Virus record (IMG/VR): IMGVR_UViG_3300021961_000794
Coordinates: 1-20,507 of that record
Source of the DNA: a virus
Length of the DNA: 20,507 nt
Strand: one strand, 5' to 3'
Under the pieces are notes generated by a model, which worked only from the letters and a program-made list of their open reading frames with translations, was not told the DNA's origin and made no database searches. Within the stretch, counting starts at the first letter, position 1; every line of letters starts with the position of its first letter. This document shows positions 2,924 to 11,868 of this stretch, in pieces. The position numbers and the translations under genes are program-made.

Positions 2924-4429
2924 ATGGGCGTTTTTGACTTCATGAAGCGCGAAAAGAAGCCTGTCGCTCGCCGATCCTACAAGGCGGCGCAAGGCGGGCG
3001 CTTGTTCTCGGACTTTGTGGCATCGAGCCGTTCGGCGGATTCGGAGATCAAGGCGGCGCTGCAAACGCTTCGCTATCGATGCCGCGATCTCTCTCGCAAC
3101 GATGAATATGCGCGGCGCTTCCTGACGCTCATCAAAACGAACGTGGTCGGCGATCGAGGTGTTCAAGTCCAGGTCAAAGCGAAGAACGCCGATGGCACTT
3201 TCGACGCGCCTGGAAATTCGATCATAGAGAACGCTTGGTCCGCTTGGGGTCGAAAGGGTATCTGCACAGTAGATGGTCGCTATTCATGGAAGGACGCGCA
3301 ACGCTCCGCCGCTGAAGCGATCGCCCGCGATGGCGAAATCTTGGTTCGCTTGGTCAGCTATCCCAACAATTCGCACGGGTTCGCGATTGAGTTTCTCGAG
3401 GTCGATCTCCTCGATGAGAATCACAACGAAACGCTCAAGAATGGCAACAAGGTTCGCATGGGGGTCGAGATCGATCGGTTCCATCGTCCCGTGGCATATC
3501 ATCTTTTGACCGCTCACCCAGGCGACAACGAGTATTCGAGCCATGCTGGATCGCGCCGCATTCGCGTTCCAGCCGACAAAATTCTTCACATCTTCCTTCC
3601 CGAGCGGGCGCAACAAACGCGCGGGGTTCCGTGGATGGCGGCGGCGATCGCACCGCTCAAGCAACTGAACGGGATGCGCGAGGCGGTCCTAGTCAATGAG
3701 CGCATTTCGGCATCCAAGATGGGTTTCTTCACGACCCCGAGCGGCGATGAGTTCGTCGGCGATGATGTCGAAAATTCTTATACACCGATCATCGAGGCGG
3801 AGCCTGGCACGTTCCATCAACTCCCCGCTGGCGTGGACTTCAAGACGTTCGACCCGTCATCGAGCGCAAACACATTTGCGGACTTCGAACGCGCGATCCT
3901 TCGCGGCATCGCCTCGGGCCTCGGGGTCTCTTATGCTTCGCTCTCGAACGATCTGACGCAAACGTCATATTCCTCGATCCGCCAAGGTGCGCTCGAGGAT
4001 CGCGACTTTTACAAGGTGCTGCACGATTTCATGATCGAACATTTTGTCCAACCGATCTTCCGCGCTTGGCTGATGGCGGTGATGGACAACGGCGCGATTC
4101 CGATCCCGCCAACGCGCTTTGACAAATTCGCCGAAAATGTGGAGTTCCGCGCTCGAGGCTTTGCTTGGGTCGATCCGCAAAGAGAGATGTCGGCTTCGGT
4201 TATGGGCATGGCGAACGGCATCCTCTCGATGCAAGATGTCGCGAACCAATACGGGCGCGACATCGAGGACGTTATGGACCAGATCGTTCGCGAAAAGACG
4301 ATGGCAGCGGAGCGCGGTCTCAAGATCGCGTTCGAGCCGTTCGGCGGCGGTCAATCTGGCTATGGTCCGATCAAGATCGCGCCCGAGGACTTGGTGAACC
4401 CGCCGAGCGATGGTGGTGTCGATGGCTGA
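2924..4429 (+). CDS. Portal protein, lambda family
   Basis: Forms the dodecameric ring at the capsid vertex through which DNA is packaged and to which the tail attaches. At 501 aa it is close to lambda gpB (533 aa). It shows the family pattern: a basic N-terminus, LRYRCRDLSRNDEYARRFL followed by NVVGDRG near residues 47-77, an SAWG segment, a conserved RDGEILVR segment, and a GIASGLGVSYASLSND...YSSIRQG region near residues 325-352 that is characteristic of this portal family. An AGGCGAGG-like ribosome binding site lies in the end of the preceding gene, two bases away. The 3' end overlaps the next gene by about 8 nt, consistent with coupled translation of head genes. Confidence 0.95.
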   Translation: MGVFDFMKREKKPVARRSYKAAQGGRLFSDFVASSRSADSEIKAALQTLRYRCRDLSRNDEYARRFLTLIKTNVVGDRGVQVQVKAKNADGTFDAPGNSIIENAWSAWGRKGICTVDGRYSWKDAQRSAAEAIARDGEILVRLVSYPNNSHGFAIEFLEVDLLDENHNETLKNGNKVRMGVEIDRFHRPVAYHLLTAHPGDNEYSSHAGSRRIRVPADKILHIFLPERAQQTRGVPWMAAAIAPLKQLNGMREAVLVNERISASKMGFFTTPSGDEFVGDDVENSYTPIIEAEPGTFHQLPAGVDFKTFDPSSSANTFADFERAILRGIASGLGVSYASLSNDLTQTSYSSIRQGALEDRDFYKVLHDFMIEHFVQPIFRAWLMAVMDNGAIPIPPTRFDKFAENVEFRARGFAWVDPQREMSASVMGMANGILSMQDVANQYGRDIEDVMDQIVREKTMAAERGLKIAFEPFGGGQSGYGPIKIAPEDLVNPPSDGGVDG

Positions 4430-6932
4430 GAACATACCAACCGATGCAATGGTCGAGGAAGCCGAGCGCGGCCTCGCCTGGCGTTCTGAGTTCGGACGCG
4501 GTGGCACCGAGGTCGGGATCGCTCGCGCTCGCGACATCGTGAACCGCAAGAACCTCTCCGACGACACGGTGGTTCGCATGAACTCCTATTTCGCTCGGCA
4601 TGAGGTGGACAAGGATGCCGAGGGTTTTCGTCCAGGCGAAGAAGGGTATCCATCGAACGGGCGTATCGCCTGGGCGCTCTGGGGCGGCGATGCGGGCCAA
4701 GCCTGGGCCTCGGCAAAGGTCGAGGACATGATCGCGGCGAAGGCAGAGGATGCTCGGCCTTATCCGAACGAACACGCCGCTAGGATTACCGATCCAGATC
4801 GATATGATTCTTTCGCCAGGGTGAACGATGCCTTTGGAGATGGAATCGATGCGATTTATGGTGTAAAAGAGGGAGAGGGGGCCGAACTGCAAGCGATCCG
4901 ATTTGATGCGGTTCGCTTCACGGTGGCAGAGGCGAAAGCCTGGCTTGATGAACACGACTATTCCCCGATTTTATTCGAGGAAGCTATTGGAGAAAGGGCC
5001 GAGCCGATGAGCGAGGAACTGGAACAAAGACAAGAGATCGACACTCAGATCGAAACCAATGAGCCTGAGATCGCCGAGGAAACGGTCGCCACAGCCGCGG
5101 ACAGCGCCGCTGATGGGGATGTCGAGGTTTCTGAGGGTGATCGCAAGGCTCCGCTCGAGATGCACCACCGCTCGATCGGCATGGAGGCGGAGGTCGAGGA
5201 CGATCGCCGCGTTCGAATGTCGATCTCGAGCGAAAAGCCTGTCGAGCGTTCATTTGGCATCGAAATACTAGATCACAACGAACGGTCGATCGACCTTTCG
5301 TTTCTGAACTCGGGCAACGCTCCACTGTTGCTCGATCACGACCCCGAGAGACAAATCGGGGTTATCGAATCTGTGAACCTCGATTCCTCGGCGCGGCGAC
5401 TCCGCGCGACTGTGCGTTTCAGCAAAGGCGCACTTGGTTCCGAGGTTCTGGATGACGTTCGAGATGGTATCCGCAAAAATGTATCGATCGGGTATCGGAT
5501 CGCGCGTATGGAACGCGACGAAAAGGCGGCGGGTGGGAACACTTACCGCGCTCGCGCGTGGACCCCGATGGAGGCTTCCATCGTTTCCATTCCTGCGGAC
5601 GAAACCGTGGGCGTGGGGCGCAAAGCCGAAATCAAATCACCTGCAAACCCTGAGAAAATGGAGGCTCAAATGAGCGAACATGAAATCCAGGCAGTTGAGG
5701 AACGCGCCCGCGCGGAATACGCCAAAACTGTCAACGAAATCCTTGAAATCGGCGCGGCCAAGGGCAAGCGCGATCTGGCAAATCAGGCGGTCAAAGATGG
5801 CCTGACTGTTGCTCAGTTCCGCGGCATCCTTGCTGTTGCCTCGGCAGATCAACCGATCGACACTCCTGACAACGTGGGCATGAACACCCAAGAGCGCAAG
5901 CAATACTCGCTGCTCAATGCGTTCCGTGCCGCCGCTGCTGGTCGTGAAATCGGTGGCTTCGAGCGTGAAATCTCTGACGAAATCGCGAAGCGCACGGGCA
6001 AGGAAGCCCGCGGCTTCTACATTCCGTCCGACATCTTCAAGCGCGATCTGACTGTCGGCACCAACTCCGCTGGCGGCTACCTCAAGCCGACTGACCACCT
6101 GGGCGGCGAGTTCATCGACGCTCTGCGTCCGAACCTTGTGACTGCCAACCTCGGCGCTCGCATGATGTCGGGCCTCAAAGGTGACATTGCGATCCCTGCA
6201 CTGAATGCGAAAACCGCTGTCGGTTTCGTAGCAGAGAACTCCGCTCCTGGCTCAGAAGGCGCTCCGACCTTCCGTCAGGTCACAATGTCGCCGAAAACGA
6301 TCGCTCAATATGTCGATCTGTCGCGCAAATTGATGATGCAGTCTGACCCCTCGGTCGAACAAGTTATCCGTGACGATATGCTGCGTCAGTTCGCAGCCAA
6401 GATCGATGAAGTCGCGATCGAAGGCGGTGGCTCGAACGAACCGACTGGTATCACTCAAACCTCGGGCATCGGTTCGGTCGCAATCGGCACCAACGGCGGC
6501 GCGATCACTTACGCCGCTGCGGTAAACCTCGAGCGCGAAGTTGCTATCGACAACGCTCTCGGTGGTCGCCTGTCCTACCTGACGAACCCGAAGGTGGTCG
6601 CTTCGATGCGGACGACTTCGCGTCAGGCATCCGGTGTTGAAGGCAACTTCATCCTGAACGACTCGAACACCCTTCTGGGCTATGGTGTGGCTTCCTCGAC
6701 CCTTGTGCCGAGCGACCTCACCAAAGGCACCTCCTCGGGCGTTTGCTCGGCCATGATCTTCGGCAACTTCGCCGACCTCATGATCGGGATGTTCGGCGGT
6801 CTCGATGTTCTGGTCGATCCTTACACTGGTTCCTCGACTGGTGCGACCCGCGTGGCAATGTTCCAGGATGTCGATGTGGCTGTTCGCCATGCCGAATCGT
6901 TCGCTGCGATCTTGGACATCACCACCGCCTAA
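4422..6932 (+). CDS. Prohead protease (S78) fused to HK97-fold major capsid protein, with two N-terminal accessory domains
   Basis: A single ORF of 836 aa (840 if ATG 4410 is used). Residues about 1-105 form one accessory domain (RGLAWRSEFGRGGTEVG...GRIAWALWGGD), and about 110-188 a second (RPYPNEHAARI...AIRFDAVRFT), both of unknown role. A Glu-rich linker follows. Residues about 245-405 are the HK97 prohead protease, with candidate catalytic His306 (LLLDHD), Ser355 (KNVSIGYR) and Glu384 (MEASIVSIPAD). From residue 417 comes the HK97 major capsid protein. HK97 itself uses separate protease and capsid genes. Codon choice shifts near 5670 toward GAA, CTG, CGT and GCT, as expected for a highly expressed coat protein. 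The ORF overlaps the portal gene. Confidence 0.92.
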   Translation: MAENIPTDAMVEEAERGLAWRSEFGRGGTEVGIARARDIVNRKNLSDDTVVRMNSYFARHEVDKDAEGFRPGEEGYPSNGRIAWALWGGDAGQAWASAKVEDMIAAKAEDARPYPNEHAARITDPDRYDSFARVNDAFGDGIDAIYGVKEGEGAELQAIRFDAVRFTVAEAKAWLDEHDYSPILFEEAIGERAEPMSEELEQRQEIDTQIETNEPEIAEETVATAADSAADGDVEVSEGDRKAPLEMHHRSIGMEAEVEDDRRVRMSISSEKPVERSFGIEILDHNERSIDLSFLNSGNAPLLLDHDPERQIGVIESVNLDSSARRLRATVRFSKGALGSEVLDDVRDGIRKNVSIGYRIARMERDEKAAGGNTYRARAWTPMEASIVSIPADETVGVGRKAEIKSPANPEKMEAQMSEHEIQAVEERARAEYAKTVNEILEIGAAKGKRDLANQAVKDGLTVAQFRGILAVASADQPIDTPDNVGMNTQERKQYSLLNAFRAAAAGREIGGFEREISDEIAKRTGKEARGFYIPSDIFKRDLTVGTNSAGGYLKPTDHLGGEFIDALRPNLVTANLGARMMSGLKGDIAIPALNAKTAVGFVAENSAPGSEGAPTFRQVTMSPKTIAQYVDLSRKLMMQSDPSVEQVIRDDMLRQFAAKIDEVAIEGGGSNEPTGITQTSGIGSVAIGTNGGAITYAAAVNLEREVAIDNALGGRLSYLTNPKVVASMRTTSRQASGVEGNFILNDSNTLLGYGVASSTLVPSDLTKGTSSGVCSAMIFGNFADLMIGMFGGLDVLVDPYTGSSTGATRVAMFQDVDVAVRHAESFAAILDITTA
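5660..5672 (+). promoter_or_regulatory. Internal ribosome binding site and start codon for the capsid protein
   Basis: GGAGG (5660-5664), a five-base spacer, then ATG (5670-5672), inside the long protease-capsid ORF and exactly at the boundary between the protease C-terminus and the capsid N-terminus. An in-frame ATG at 5658 also exists but would overlap the Shine-Dalgarno. Confidence 0.7.
5670..6932 (+). CDS. Major capsid protein, HK97 fold, probable internal translation product
   Basis: A 420-aa in-frame product starting at an internal ATG of the protease-capsid ORF. GGAGG (5660-5664) sits five bases upstream of ATG 5670, a near-ideal ribosome binding site. The N-terminal about 100 residues (MSEHEIQAVEERARAEY...) are helical and charged like an HK97 delta or scaffold domain, which the protease would remove. 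The coat fold follows from about residue 125 (NSAGGYLKP, then ALNAKTAVGFVAENS, MSPKTIAQYVDLSRKLM, and a P-domain-like GLDVLVDPYTGSSTG near the end). It would supply the large molar excess of coat over protease that capsid assembly needs. The internal start is inferred from the sequence and not proven. Confidence 0.75.
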   Translation: MSEHEIQAVEERARAEYAKTVNEILEIGAAKGKRDLANQAVKDGLTVAQFRGILAVASADQPIDTPDNVGMNTQERKQYSLLNAFRAAAAGREIGGFEREISDEIAKRTGKEARGFYIPSDIFKRDLTVGTNSAGGYLKPTDHLGGEFIDALRPNLVTANLGARMMSGLKGDIAIPALNAKTAVGFVAENSAPGSEGAPTFRQVTMSPKTIAQYVDLSRKLMMQSDPSVEQVIRDDMLRQFAAKIDEVAIEGGGSNEPTGITQTSGIGSVAIGTNGGAITYAAAVNLEREVAIDNALGGRLSYLTNPKVVASMRTTSRQASGVEGNFILNDSNTLLGYGVASSTLVPSDLTKGTSSGVCSAMIFGNFADLMIGMFGGLDVLVDPYTGSSTGATRVAMFQDVDVAVRHAESFAAILDITTA

Positions 6933-8144: not shown

Positions 8145-8537
8145 ATGGCTACTTTTGCAGGAAGCGGGGGCGTTATCAAAATCGGCAGCAACGCAGTTGC
8201 CGAGGTTCGCTCCTATTCGATCGACGAAAACATGGACACCCTAGAGGACACGGCCATGGGGGATACGTCCCGAACATACAAGGCGTCCCTCAAGACGTTC
8301 TCGGGTTCGGCTGATGTGTTCTTTGACGACACTGACACAACGGGCCAAGGCGGTCTGACTGTCGGTTCTACTGGCACCATTTCGATCCTGATGGAAGGCG
8401 ACACTACTGGCGATCATAGCCTGTCGGGTTCGATCCTTGTAACTGGTCGCACGATCACCGCCTCTTTCGATGGCATGGTCGAGGCATCGATCACGTTCCA
8501 GGGAACGGGTGCGCTGACTGAAGGCACTGTTGCCTAA
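8145..8537 (+). CDS. Major tail tube protein
   Basis: A 130-aa beta-rich protein that would polymerise into the tail tube. Features typical of tube proteins are the opening FAGSGGVIKIGSNAVAEVRS, a Ser/Thr/Gly/Asp-rich body with a DTAMGDTSRTYKASLKTFSG segment (the conserved tube pattern of a -T-- loop followed by a SGSADVFFDDTD strand), and a closing ASITFQGTGALTEG strand. The ribosome binding site GAGGAA lies in the end of the previous gene, with three bases between stop and start. Position before the tail chaperone pair matches siphophage order. Codon choice is nearer the capsid gene than its neighbours, consistent with high expression. Confidence 0.85.
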   Translation: MATFAGSGGVIKIGSNAVAEVRSYSIDENMDTLEDTAMGDTSRTYKASLKTFSGSADVFFDDTDTTGQGGLTVGSTGTISILMEGDTTGDHSLSGSILVTGRTITASFDGMVEASITFQGTGALTEGTVA

Positions 8538-8553: not shown

Positions 8554-8919
8554 ATGGCGGCTAATTCTAAATCCTCGGGCCTAAGCGCGATCGAACGCGC
8601 GAAGGCTCATTACCTAAATCAGCCCATTCGGGAGATCACAGTTCCCGAGTGGGCTGACGAAGATGGAAATCCTTTTGTCTTTTATGCGCGACCTTTCACG
8701 CTGCAAGATCAAGGAAAACTCCAGTTCGCGGTCAAGAACCAATCCGAGGCGGATGCTCTCGCCGAGGTTCTGATTATGAAAGCGATCGACGCTGACGGGA
8801 ACAAGGTGTTCAGCGTGGGCGACAAACAAACGCTGCGAGGTTCGGTCGATGCGAACATCCTCGCGCGGGTCGCGAATCAGATCATGGGAGGCAACTCCGA
8901 GGAACTGGAAAAAAACTAA
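8554..8919 (+). CDS. Tail assembly chaperone, short form (gpG-like)
   Basis: A 121-aa protein in the chaperone slot between tail tube and tape measure. It should coat the tape measure and recruit tube subunits, as lambda gpG does. The sequence has a helical start (SAIERAKAHYLNQP), a strand section with WADEDGNPFVFYARPFTLQDQG (a pattern of gpG-type chaperones that handle tail tube and tape measure), then helices rich in Ala, Asp and Glu. TAGGAG precedes the start. The stop codon comes directly after a canonical -1 slippery heptamer, so a fraction of ribosomes should make the longer form listed separately. Confidence 0.8.
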   Translation: MAANSKSSGLSAIERAKAHYLNQPIREITVPEWADEDGNPFVFYARPFTLQDQGKLQFAVKNQSEADALAEVLIMKAIDADGNKVFSVGDKQTLRGSVDANILARVANQIMGGNSEELEKN

Positions 8920-9119
8920 GGGGGAGCGAGGAACGGCAGTTCAAGTTTTTTCTCGCTGAGAAACTGGGCAAAACGGTCGAGCAACTCGAAACCGAAATGT
9001 CTGTTGATGAATTTTTGGAATGGTCGGTGTATATTCAAGTCATATCCGATCGACAAAAACAGGCGATGAAAAAACATGGCAACAACCAGGCTCGAAACCC
9101 GCCTCACCGCAAGAGATGA
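8554..9119 (+). CDS. Tail assembly chaperone, long form by -1 frameshift (gpGT-like)
   Basis: Predicted fusion of 188 aa: 121 codons of the short form, slippage at 8910-8916, then 67 codons in the -1 frame (re-reading base 8916 as the start of a CTA codon) to a TGA at 9117-9119. The extension, beginning LRGSEERQFKFFLAEKLGKT and including the EFLEWSVYIQVISDRQKQAM segment, is charged and helical and ends in a basic Asn/Arg-rich tail. It looks like the gpT part of lambda gpGT, with a typical W-S/A..Y motif. No start codon with its own ribosome binding site is visible for this frame. It overlaps the tape measure start (9076) by 44 nt. Depends on frameshifting, which is inferred. Confidence 0.8.
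8899..8916 (+). promoter_or_regulatory. Programmed -1 ribosomal frameshift site
   Basis: Slippery heptamer A AAA AAC (8910-8916) in the correct phase of the short chaperone frame, immediately before its TAA (8917-8919). A Shine-Dalgarno-like GAGGAA (8899-8904) lies a few bases upstream, as with the stimulatory element of E. coli dnaX. A long open -1 frame follows. Confidence 0.85.
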
Positions 9120-11868
9120 AACCGCTCGCGCGTTTCGCACACTCCAAGGCAGTCTAAACACTGTCAATGCCGCGTTTTCGCGCGTGGCTAAGGTCGCGGC
9201 TGGCTTGGGTGTCGTTTTCGGTGGCTTGTTCGTTCGAGACTTGATCTCGGTCAACAGAGAGTTTCAGAGCCTTAAAGCCTCGCTCATTACCTTCACGGGG
9301 TCGGTGGAGAATGCGGACGGAGCGTTCCGCATTCTTCGCGACTTCGCCAGCAAGACGCCTTTTTCGCTGCAAGAGGTGGTCACATCTTTCAACATCTTGG
9401 TTTCGCGCGGCATCCGTCCGACTGAGGAACAACTTTCGTCCTTCGCGGACATAGCGGGCGGCACATCGAAATCGATCGAGCAATTCGCCGAAGCGGTGGC
9501 GGATGCTTCTGTCGGCGAGTTCGAACGCCTCAAAGAGTTTGGCATTCGCGCCTCGAAAGAGGGGAACAAACTCACCCTGTCGATGGGTGACTACACCAAG
9601 ACCATCAACAACGATTCCGCTTCGATCTTGGCGGCACTGCAAGAGATTGGGCAACTAAAATTCGCGGGCGGCGCAATTCGCCAAGCCGAAACCCTTGGCG
9701 GCTCGATCACCAACTTGCGCGATAGTTTCGATGCCTTTCTTTACGCAATCGGTGAGGCTGGATTCGCTGGCGAACTTTCGAAGGCGGTTCGCATCCTCAC
9801 ATCGATGATCTCGGGCAACGATGATCTCGCCAAATCAATTTCGAATCGACTGAACACTGCCCTCTATGCCGCTGTCGCTGCGATTCGTTTTGTGGTGGAT
9901 AACCTCGACACGCTCTTAATGGCATTCAAGGTCGCCTTTGCGGTGGCGGTTATAAGTCGAATCTTGACTGTGGGAAAAGCCTTTATCGATTTCGGAAAGG
10001 CTGTTGCAAAGAGCCAACTGGCGGTCACGGTTTTCAGCGCAATTATGCAAAAAGTATCGACTAGGATGAAACTCGGCGCGGCGGGTTTTCTTCTTAGCAC
10101 GGCAGCATTGATCGAATTTAGCGATGAGATTCGAGGCTTCCTCGGCGATCTAGTCGATACGATCGACCTCACTGGCGCACTTGATCGAGTGTTCGGAACT
10201 CTCGGCCTATCAACTGAATCGCTCGAGAGCCGATTCAATGAATTGGCCTCTGAACTTGATGGGACTGATACGGAGTTCGTTAAAAACAACAATTCGATCC
10301 TCGATTTCCTTCCGACAATGGATGGCGCGGGGAGTTCAATTTCTAACACGACTGACGCCGCCTCAGAGTTGCGTCGAGCCTTGGATGACATCAAAAAGAC
10401 GATCGATCCTGTTGGTGTCGCTCTCAAAGGTCTTGCCGCTGAGAACACTTTGCTCAAAAGAGCGGTCGCCGATGGCACGATGACACAAGAAGATGCGATT
10501 AGTGTTCTCAATCGTTTGACCAGACAGGCGCTCGGCCTCGATGACACGATGGGCGAACTCCAAGATCAACAACTCAAGGTCGAGGCGGCTTTCAAGGCTG
10601 GCGTGATCTCTGGCGCGGAATATGAAAAAGCGATCTCTGACATTCGCAGCGGGATCATCGACTATCGCGCGGAAACCGAAAAGACCTTTGGTGCGGGTGC
10701 GATCCGAGGGATCAAGAACTACTATCAATCGATCTCGGACAACGCCGCGAACGCTACCGATTTTGTGTCTGACGCATTCGGATCGCTCGAGTCCTCGCTC
10801 TCGGATTTCTTCTATACTGGGAAATTCGATTTCCAGACTTTCACGAACGCGATTAAGAAGGGTCTCGCCGACCTCGCCGCAAAGGCGGTCGTCACGGTAG
10901 GCTTGAACTTTCTGGGCAAGATATTCCCTGGCCTTCAGTTCGCCGATGGTGGTCTTGTCCCTGGGTCGGGTGGACCTAGAGCCGATGACGTTCTCGCACG
11001 GGTTTCGTCGGGCGAATATGTCATCAAAGCCTCGAGCGTTAGCAAGTTCGGCTCGGGTTTCTTCGATGCCATAAACGCGGGGCAGATGCCGAACACTGGT
11101 GGCGGCGGATTTTCGATCGATGCTGGCGTGATGGAGGGCGTGACTCAAGGTTTCGGCTTTGGCGGTTTCTTGAAAGACCTTTGGGAGGGCATCACCAACA
11201 CGATCAAAAACATCCTCAATGGTATTTTCAACACGATCAAAAACATCGTCGGCGCGATCACCAACGCGGTGAAAGGCTTGGTCTCCGCGATTATGAGCGG
11301 CGACATCCTTAGCATTGCCGCCTTCGCTCTGCCGTTCATTCTCCCTGGCGTGGGGTCGGCAATCGCTGGGAATCTGGCGGCTGGTAGCGGCTTGATCGGA
11401 TCGATCAGCGGCGGCATTTCTAGTGCGTTCGCTGGTGGCATCCTCGGCGCTGGAAACCTCTCCGCGATCGCCACATCGGTCGGCATCGAGTTCGCGAAAG
11501 GCGCGGTCATCGATGGCTTGACCGAGGCAATCACGACCCAGGTTCTCAAGATCACTGGCAACATGGCCCTCTCTGGCGGCGCTTATGAGGCAGATCGCTC
11601 CGAACGCTTCGGGAAGCTATATAGCGATGCCGCGCCATATTTGGCGGGGATGACGGGTTCGCGCTTCAATGCTGGCGACAATGTTCGCGTGGGAGAGCGT
11701 GGCGAGGAACTCCTGATCCCTGGGCGGAACGGTATGGTCGCGCCGATCAAGGGTTCCGCTAACGACCTCATCGATGTCGTGAAAGATATGAAGGAGGAGA
11801 TCGTTCTCCTCCGCCGCCAGATGAGCCGCGTGATCGCTGGCGGTCAACTTGTGGGGGCGCGTTCGTAA
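9076..11868 (+). CDS. Tail tape measure protein
   Basis: Sets tail length and is ejected with the DNA; 930 aa. The N-terminus shows the usual tape-measure pattern (ARDETARAFRTLQGSL, then FASKTPFSLQEVVTSF, and a GEFERLKEFGIRASKEG segment within about residues 100-170). Hydrophobic stretches lie about residues 275-300 and in the Ala/Gly-rich C-terminal third (about 730-830). A short tandem unit with NTIKNI repeated 11 residues apart is near residue 710. Near the C-terminal third are GGPRADDVLARVSSGEYVI and later VGERGEELLIPG, motifs often seen at the ends of tape measures. The gene starts inside the chaperone -1 frame. Confidence 0.93.
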   Translation: MATTRLETRLTARDETARAFRTLQGSLNTVNAAFSRVAKVAAGLGVVFGGLFVRDLISVNREFQSLKASLITFTGSVENADGAFRILRDFASKTPFSLQEVVTSFNILVSRGIRPTEEQLSSFADIAGGTSKSIEQFAEAVADASVGEFERLKEFGIRASKEGNKLTLSMGDYTKTINNDSASILAALQEIGQLKFAGGAIRQAETLGGSITNLRDSFDAFLYAIGEAGFAGELSKAVRILTSMISGNDDLAKSISNRLNTALYAAVAAIRFVVDNLDTLLMAFKVAFAVAVISRILTVGKAFIDFGKAVAKSQLAVTVFSAIMQKVSTRMKLGAAGFLLSTAALIEFSDEIRGFLGDLVDTIDLTGALDRVFGTLGLSTESLESRFNELASELDGTDTEFVKNNNSILDFLPTMDGAGSSISNTTDAASELRRALDDIKKTIDPVGVALKGLAAENTLLKRAVADGTMTQEDAISVLNRLTRQALGLDDTMGELQDQQLKVEAAFKAGVISGAEYEKAISDIRSGIIDYRAETEKTFGAGAIRGIKNYYQSISDNAANATDFVSDAFGSLESSLSDFFYTGKFDFQTFTNAIKKGLADLAAKAVVTVGLNFLGKIFPGLQFADGGLVPGSGGPRADDVLARVSSGEYVIKASSVSKFGSGFFDAINAGQMPNTGGGGFSIDAGVMEGVTQGFGFGGFLKDLWEGITNTIKNILNGIFNTIKNIVGAITNAVKGLVSAIMSGDILSIAAFALPFILPGVGSAIAGNLAAGSGLIGSISGGISSAFAGGILGAGNLSAIATSVGIEFAKGAVIDGLTEAITTQVLKITGNMALSGGAYEADRSERFGKLYSDAAPYLAGMTGSRFNAGDNVRVGERGEELLIPGRNGMVAPIKGSANDLIDVVKDMKEEIVLLRRQMSRVIAGGQLVGARS
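11196..11247 (+). repeat. Short tandem repeat in the tape measure gene
   Basis: Nineteen identical bases (CAACACGATCAAAAACATC) at 11196-11214 and 11229-11247, 33 bases apart, encoding two NTIKNI units 11 residues apart in the hydrophobic-rich part of the tape measure. Tape measure length can change by gain or loss of such units. Confidence 0.7.

What the first reader, a model, noticed from the sequence alone, without database searches (positions are those of the whole stretch)
8899..9119. Canonical -1 frameshift makes a gpGT-type tail chaperone
The short chaperone frame ends A AAA AAC TAA, with the heptamer in exact X XXY YYZ phase and the stop right behind it. A Shine-Dalgarno-like GAGGAA lies a few bases upstream, as in dnaX. 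The -1 frame then continues for 67 codons with a plausible charged helical sequence and no start of its own. This gene is easily missed by automated annotation. Lambda uses a different slippery site (GGGAAAG) for the same purpose.
Basis: partly seen in the sequence, partly recalled or inferred. Interest (0 to 1): 0.65.

Follow-up and report, generated by a model that had tools for sequence, protein, structure and literature searches.

The report
Frameshifted tail-assembly chaperone in marine phage
This marine phage makes two versions of a tail-building helper protein by letting some ribosomes slip back one base at AAAAAAC; relatives keep the site almost without exception, but the trick itself has been known since phage lambda.

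Summary
The 121-aa frame 8554-8919 ends GAA AAA AAC UAA. The heptamer A_AAA_AAC lies at 8910-8916 in exact X_XXY_YYZ phase and the stop follows it. The -1 frame (8916-9119) adds 67 codons, with no ATG/GTG/TTG before residue 28, and overlaps the start of the tape-measure gene at 9076.

The short protein matches a tail-assembly-chaperone PHROG, and its AlphaFold model has the HK97 tail assembly chaperone (2OB9) as best PDB match. The -1 extension matches a tail-protein PHROG and is under purifying selection. The heptamer is kept in 85 of 86 distinct relatives (30 clusters below 85% DNA identity), with 0/435 synonymous differences at each of its two codons against about 57% elsewhere in the gene. 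One relative (L022) has GAAAGAAAC.

The comparison with dnaX is loose.

This is a new member of a known kind. The same heptamer beside the chaperone stop is published for Acinetobacter phage Loki, and A_AAA_AAC for Caulobacter phage phiCbK. Frameshifting itself was not measured.

The parts
8554..8919 (+). G-type tail assembly chaperone, zero-frame product of 121 aa
   Evidence: ORF; phrog_344 tail assembly chaperone 9.4e-8; Pfam Phage_TAC_13 below cut-off, matched by 17 of 25 family members; AF2 model pLDDT 83.8, best PDB match 2ob9 HK97 tail assembly chaperone E 6e-4
8899..8904 (+). Shine-Dalgarno-like GAGGAA upstream of the slip site (role uncertain)
   Evidence: GAG codon kept in 10 of 11 near-clade clusters but absent in the L043 group and moved in L036
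8910..8916 (+). slippery heptamer A_AAA_AAC in frame-0 phase
   Evidence: conserved in 85 of 86 distinct relatives; 0/435 synonymous differences at each of the AAA and AAC codons among 30 clusters
8917..8919 (+). zero-frame stop UAA directly behind the heptamer
   Evidence: position kept in relatives except L134, identity varies (UAA, UGA, UAG)
8916..9119 (+). -1 frame T extension, 67 codons plus stop
   Evidence: phrog_337 tail protein 2e-6, 13 of 17 family members; median dN/dS 0.18; helical AF2 model pLDDT 82
8925..8957 (+). candidate stimulatory stem-loop, 9-bp lower stem (arms 8925-8933 and 8949-8957) beginning 8 nt after the heptamer
   Evidence: synonymous sites invariant in the stem codons AGC, GAG, CTC (0/165 differences) in the near clade; no compensatory changes
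9076..11868 (+). tape measure protein, overlaps the T extension by 44 nt
   Evidence: phrog_1716 tail length tape measure protein 2e-45, Pfam TMP_3 and Tape_meas_lam_C above cut-off
8145..8537 (+). major tail (tube) protein directly upstream
   Evidence: phrog_1407 major tail protein 1.4e-11

Best explanation
The gene is a gpG/gpGT-type tail assembly chaperone gene of a siphovirus-like marine phage. Most ribosomes read frame 0 and stop at UAA 8917, making the 121-aa G protein. A minority slip back one base with tRNA-Lys and tRNA-Asn on A_AAA_AAC and continue for 67 codons, making a 188-aa GT protein. By analogy with lambda, G coats the tape measure protein and the T domain recruits the tail tube protein. 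In this clade a hairpin 8 nt downstream probably raises the slip rate. Shown here: the sequence anatomy, homology, fold, conservation and selection. Inferred: that slippage occurs, its rate, and the roles of G and GT in assembly.
For: Phase, stop and -1 frame. Position between major tail protein and tape measure. PHROG matches of both halves. HK97 tail assembly chaperone as best structural match. Heptamer kept in 85 of 86 distinct loci while protein identity falls to 26%, with zero synonymous change among 30 clusters although AAT outnumbers AAC 122:55 elsewhere in the same genes. A scan selected on the hairpin rather than the heptamer gave 45 true homologues, all with GAAAAAAACTAA. Same anatomy in cultured Pelagibacter and Roseobacter phages, some with A_AAA_AAG. 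T frame under purifying selection, with no usable start before residue 28. Hairpin stem codons synonymously frozen.
Against: No protein or reporter data. A_AAA_AAC is a low-efficiency heptamer in E. coli (PMC4066793). L022 keeps both frames with GAA AGA AAC. The hairpin is absent from the pelagiphage and L098-L105 clades. Window hairpin energy alone is unremarkable (z -0.59 over 114 nt; p 0.09 against synonymous shuffles).
Confidence: 0.95

Rival explanations
1. T is translated separately, by re-initiation or from a non-standard start just after the G stop, rather than as a fusion.
For: G stop and T frame abut; a purine-rich GGGGGAGCGAGGA follows the stop. An in-frame ATG exists at 8997.
Against: No ATG, GTG or TTG in the T frame before residue 28 in the window; candidate starts differ between relatives, while residues L1, E6, A14 and L17 upstream of M28 are conserved. 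It does not explain the frozen heptamer.
Confidence: 0.02
2. Transcriptional slippage on the A run, not ribosomal slippage, produces the frame change.
For: Run of 7 A in the window and 9 A in the pelagiphage clade.
Against: L105 and Psymv2 have only 6 A, the minimum for the heptamer. Phase and proximity to the stop are conserved, which polymerase slippage does not need. The run stays short in the window's clade.
Confidence: 0.03
3. The -1 frame is a decayed or accidental reading frame and only the 121-aa protein is made.
For: No expression data; L022 lacks a perfect heptamer.
Against: dN/dS about 0.18 and conserved length of about 50-70 codons across 30 clusters; homology to a tail-protein PHROG.
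Confidence: 0.01

Closest known systems
Acinetobacter phage vB_AbaS_Loki gp12/gp13 (PMC5313236)
   Same: AAAAAAC immediately adjacent to the chaperone stop codon, with a -1 extension of the chaperone
   Different: different host group; also predicted, not assayed; no hairpin described in the passage read
Caulobacter phage phiCbK gp93/gp94 (PMC3556154)
   Same: pre-tape-measure chaperone with -1 extension and slippery AAAAAAC; alphaproteobacterial host
   Different: large prolate siphophage; sequence relation to the window not tested
Phage lambda gpG/gpGT
   Same: same gene position, two-product logic, -1 direction, low-level frameshift (G:GT about 30:1, PMC5009743)
   Different: heptamer is G_GGA_AAG; no sequence similarity claimed here
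HK97 tail assembly chaperone (PDB 2OB9)
   Same: best fold match of the G model
   Different: 22% identity in the structural alignment; no sequence match found by profile
Pelagibacter phages HTVC026P/202P/111P/112P and Roseobacter phages CRP-406/821/823/831
   Same: homologous G (30-39% identity), in-phase A_AAA_AAC or A_AAA_AAG at the stop, -1 extension reaching the tape measure start
   Different: -1 extension not annotated in the deposited records examined

Membership tests
gpG/gpGT-type frameshifted tail assembly chaperones | gene lies between the major tail protein and the tape measure protein | tested here: met
gpG/gpGT-type frameshifted tail assembly chaperones | zero-frame product belongs to a tail assembly chaperone family or fold | tested here: met
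   phrog_344; 2ob9 top PDB match, then 3klu YqbN
gpG/gpGT-type frameshifted tail assembly chaperones | in-phase slippery site near the end of G and open -1 frame extending G | tested here: met
gpG/gpGT-type frameshifted tail assembly chaperones | T extension conserved and related to phage tail proteins | tested here: met
gpG/gpGT-type frameshifted tail assembly chaperones | slippery site conserved in relatives that keep both frames | tested here: met
   85 of 86 distinct loci; exception L022
gpG/gpGT-type frameshifted tail assembly chaperones | GT product made at a low ratio to G and required for tail assembly | not testable with these tools
   needs mass spectrometry, a reporter or mutant phage
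dnaX-type signal (upstream Shine-Dalgarno plus heptamer plus hairpin) | Shine-Dalgarno-like element about 10 nt upstream of the heptamer, conserved | tested here: inconclusive
   GAGG ends 7 nt upstream; GAG codon kept in 10 of 11 near-clade clusters, lost in the L043 group
dnaX-type signal (upstream Shine-Dalgarno plus heptamer plus hairpin) | downstream hairpin at 5-9 nt spacing | tested here: met
   8-nt spacer, stem 8925-8957, clade-restricted

The most novel reading that the evidence does not exclude
A_AAA_AAC, a weak heptamer in E. coli, is the near-exclusive slip site in a broad group of marine phages related to cultured Roseobacter and Pelagibacter phages. This could mean that alphaproteobacterial ribosomes or their tRNA-Lys/tRNA-Asn modification slip on it more readily, so that the phage signal is tuned to host decoding.
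Probability: 0.15. Interest if true: 0.45.

Novelty: new member of a known kind. Interest (0 to 1): 0.25.

Why it matters
It gives a well-supported GT call in a phage group where the T half goes unannotated. It also gives a clean comparative data set of one slip site frozen over 30 clusters with a clade-specific hairpin, in which the need for a downstream stimulator and the choice of A_AAA_AAC rather than A_AAA_AAG could be tested. It does not change the understanding of the mechanism.

Tried and rejected
Pfam on the T extension gave nothing reliable. A profile search of solved structures with G gave no match, though the fold search did. No relative of G was found in bacterial genome contigs in two scans, so no prophage or host was identified. 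A DNA-level search of annotated phages gave no match. RNAalifold found no covariation in the stem, so support for it rests on frozen synonymous sites and not on compensatory changes. A 15-base pattern meant to find further copies of the L022 variant was too short and returned chance hits. Papers on frameshifting in Pelagibacter phage chaperones: none held. The second + strand AAAAAAC (9069-9075) was considered and rejected as a slip site because it is out of phase in the -1 frame.

Full report
Observation. The window is a 20,507-base IMG/VR virus record. Reading the bases directly, the frame 8554-8919 ends ...GAG GAA CTG GAA AAA AAC TAA. The heptamer A_AAA_AAC is 8910-8916, in exact zero-frame phase, and the stop follows with no intervening codon. 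The -1 frame has no ATG, GTG or TTG before codon 28, so 'no start of its own' is right for the conserved front part. AAAAAAC as a bare string is not unusual in the window (3 found, 2.6 expected). In-phase heptamers of any X_XXY_YYZ kind occur at only 10 of 5,257 codon positions of 13 window genes, and this is the only one near a gene's end.

What the two halves are. The gene sits between a major tail protein (phrog_1407, 1.4e-11) and a tape measure protein (phrog_1716, 2e-45; two Pfam tape-measure models above cut-off). The 121-aa protein matches phrog_344 tail assembly chaperone (9.4e-8). Pfam Phage_TAC_13 is only sub-threshold but is matched by 17 of 25 family members. An AlphaFold2 model built on 25 sequences (mean pLDDT 83.8) has HK97 tail assembly chaperone 2OB9 as best PDB match (E 6e-4 and 9e-4 for two chains), followed by YqbN 3klu (0.016). 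The TM-score is modest (about 0.5), so this is family-level rather than close support. The -1 extension matches phrog_337 tail protein (2e-6; 13 of 17 family members) and is predicted helical. It is under purifying selection (median dN/dS 0.18 against 0.08 for G; dS is near saturation, so these are rough).

Conservation of the slip site. Forty-eight related viral contigs were fetched with the window's G protein, and further, more distant ones with an alignment. After removal of duplicates there are 86 distinct G+T sequences in 30 clusters below 85% DNA identity. All but one carry A_AAA_AAC in phase, including L048 at 26% protein identity. Among the 30 cluster representatives there are 0 synonymous differences in 435 comparisons at the AAA codon and 0 in 435 at the AAC codon. 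The rest of the gene shows 13,065 in 23,032 (57%), and AAT is twice as common as AAC elsewhere in these genes. The representatives share ancestry, so these comparisons are not independent. The exception, L022 (GAA AGA AAC TAA), belongs to the L005 cluster and is therefore not among the representatives; it may be real or a sequence error. The stop codon's identity is free (UAA, UGA in L098 and L105, UAG in L100) and in L134 it is one codon later, so selection acts on the heptamer and not on the stop. As a check against selection bias, a scan that fixed the downstream stem and only loosely the heptamer found 50 loci: 45 true homologues, all reading GAAAAAAACTAA, and 5 unrelated chance matches.

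Cultured relatives. Pelagibacter phages HTVC026P and HTVC202P have AAA AAA AAC at the stop; HTVC111P and HTVC112P have A_AAA_AAG followed by a strong potential hairpin. Roseobacter phages CRP-406, -821, -823 and -831 have A_AAA_AAC.

Stimulators. Eight nucleotides after the heptamer the window can form a stem-loop, 8925-8957. Within the window's clade the stem codons AGC, GAG and CTC show 0/165 synonymous differences against 41% in the rest of T. Folding energies beat synonymous-codon shuffles in most clade members (z -1.0 to -4.8), but for the window itself only p = 0.09. There is no compensatory change, and the hairpin is absent from the pelagiphage and L098-L105 clades. I take it as a probable, clade-specific stimulator. 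The upstream GAGGAA is less convincing: its core ends 7 nt before the heptamer against about 10 in dnaX (own knowledge). It is kept in 10 of 11 near-clade clusters but missing in the L043 group.

Mechanism. The most likely course is tandem -1 slippage of tRNA-Lys and tRNA-Asn on A_AAA_AAC. The UAA in the next codon and, in this clade, the hairpin would add a pause. The heptamer is poor in E. coli but is used by bacterial IS elements (PMC4066793). A low rate suits this gene: lambda needs about 30 G per GT (PMC5009743), and measured chaperone frameshifts of HK97-like genes are 6-7% (PMC3711429). Separate initiation of T, polymerase slippage and a dead frame are disfavoured for the reasons given under rivals; the 6-A runs of L105 and Psymv2 speak against polymerase slippage.

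Comparison with what is known. AAAAAAC immediately adjacent to the chaperone stop is described for Acinetobacter phage Loki (PMC5313236), AAAAAAC for phiCbK and relatives (PMC3556154), and A_AAA_AAC for the archaeal virus HCTV-2 (PMC5009743). The case meets every sequence-level defining feature of gpG/gpGT genes. The functional feature (GT made and needed) was not testable here. It is a new member of a known kind.

Noticed in passing
window 4410-6932: One 840-aa frame carries a prohead serine protease domain (Peptidase_S78, residues 298-401) and a major capsid domain (Phage_capsid, 555-833): a protease-capsid fusion.
   Followed up: partly
L053 (Prochlorococcus phage MED4-184) around 1980-2010: A similar T extension lies in the -1 frame but with no X_XXY_YYZ heptamer at the G stop; an A_AAG tetramer (GCA AAG) nine bases before the stop could serve instead.
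   Followed up: no
L055 and L056 (Pelagibacter phages HTVC112P, HTVC111P) just after the G stop: These two use A_AAA_AAG and have AGCGACC...GGTCGCT, a strong potential hairpin about 5 nt after the heptamer, unlike their A_AAA_AAC relatives.
   Followed up: no
L022, end of the chaperone frame near 3352-3366: Only relative with a broken heptamer (GAA AGA AAC TAA) while both frames stay intact; real variant or sequence error is undecided.
   Followed up: partly
window 9069-9075: A second AAAAAAC, directly before the tape measure ATG at 9076 and out of phase in the -1 frame.
   Followed up: yes
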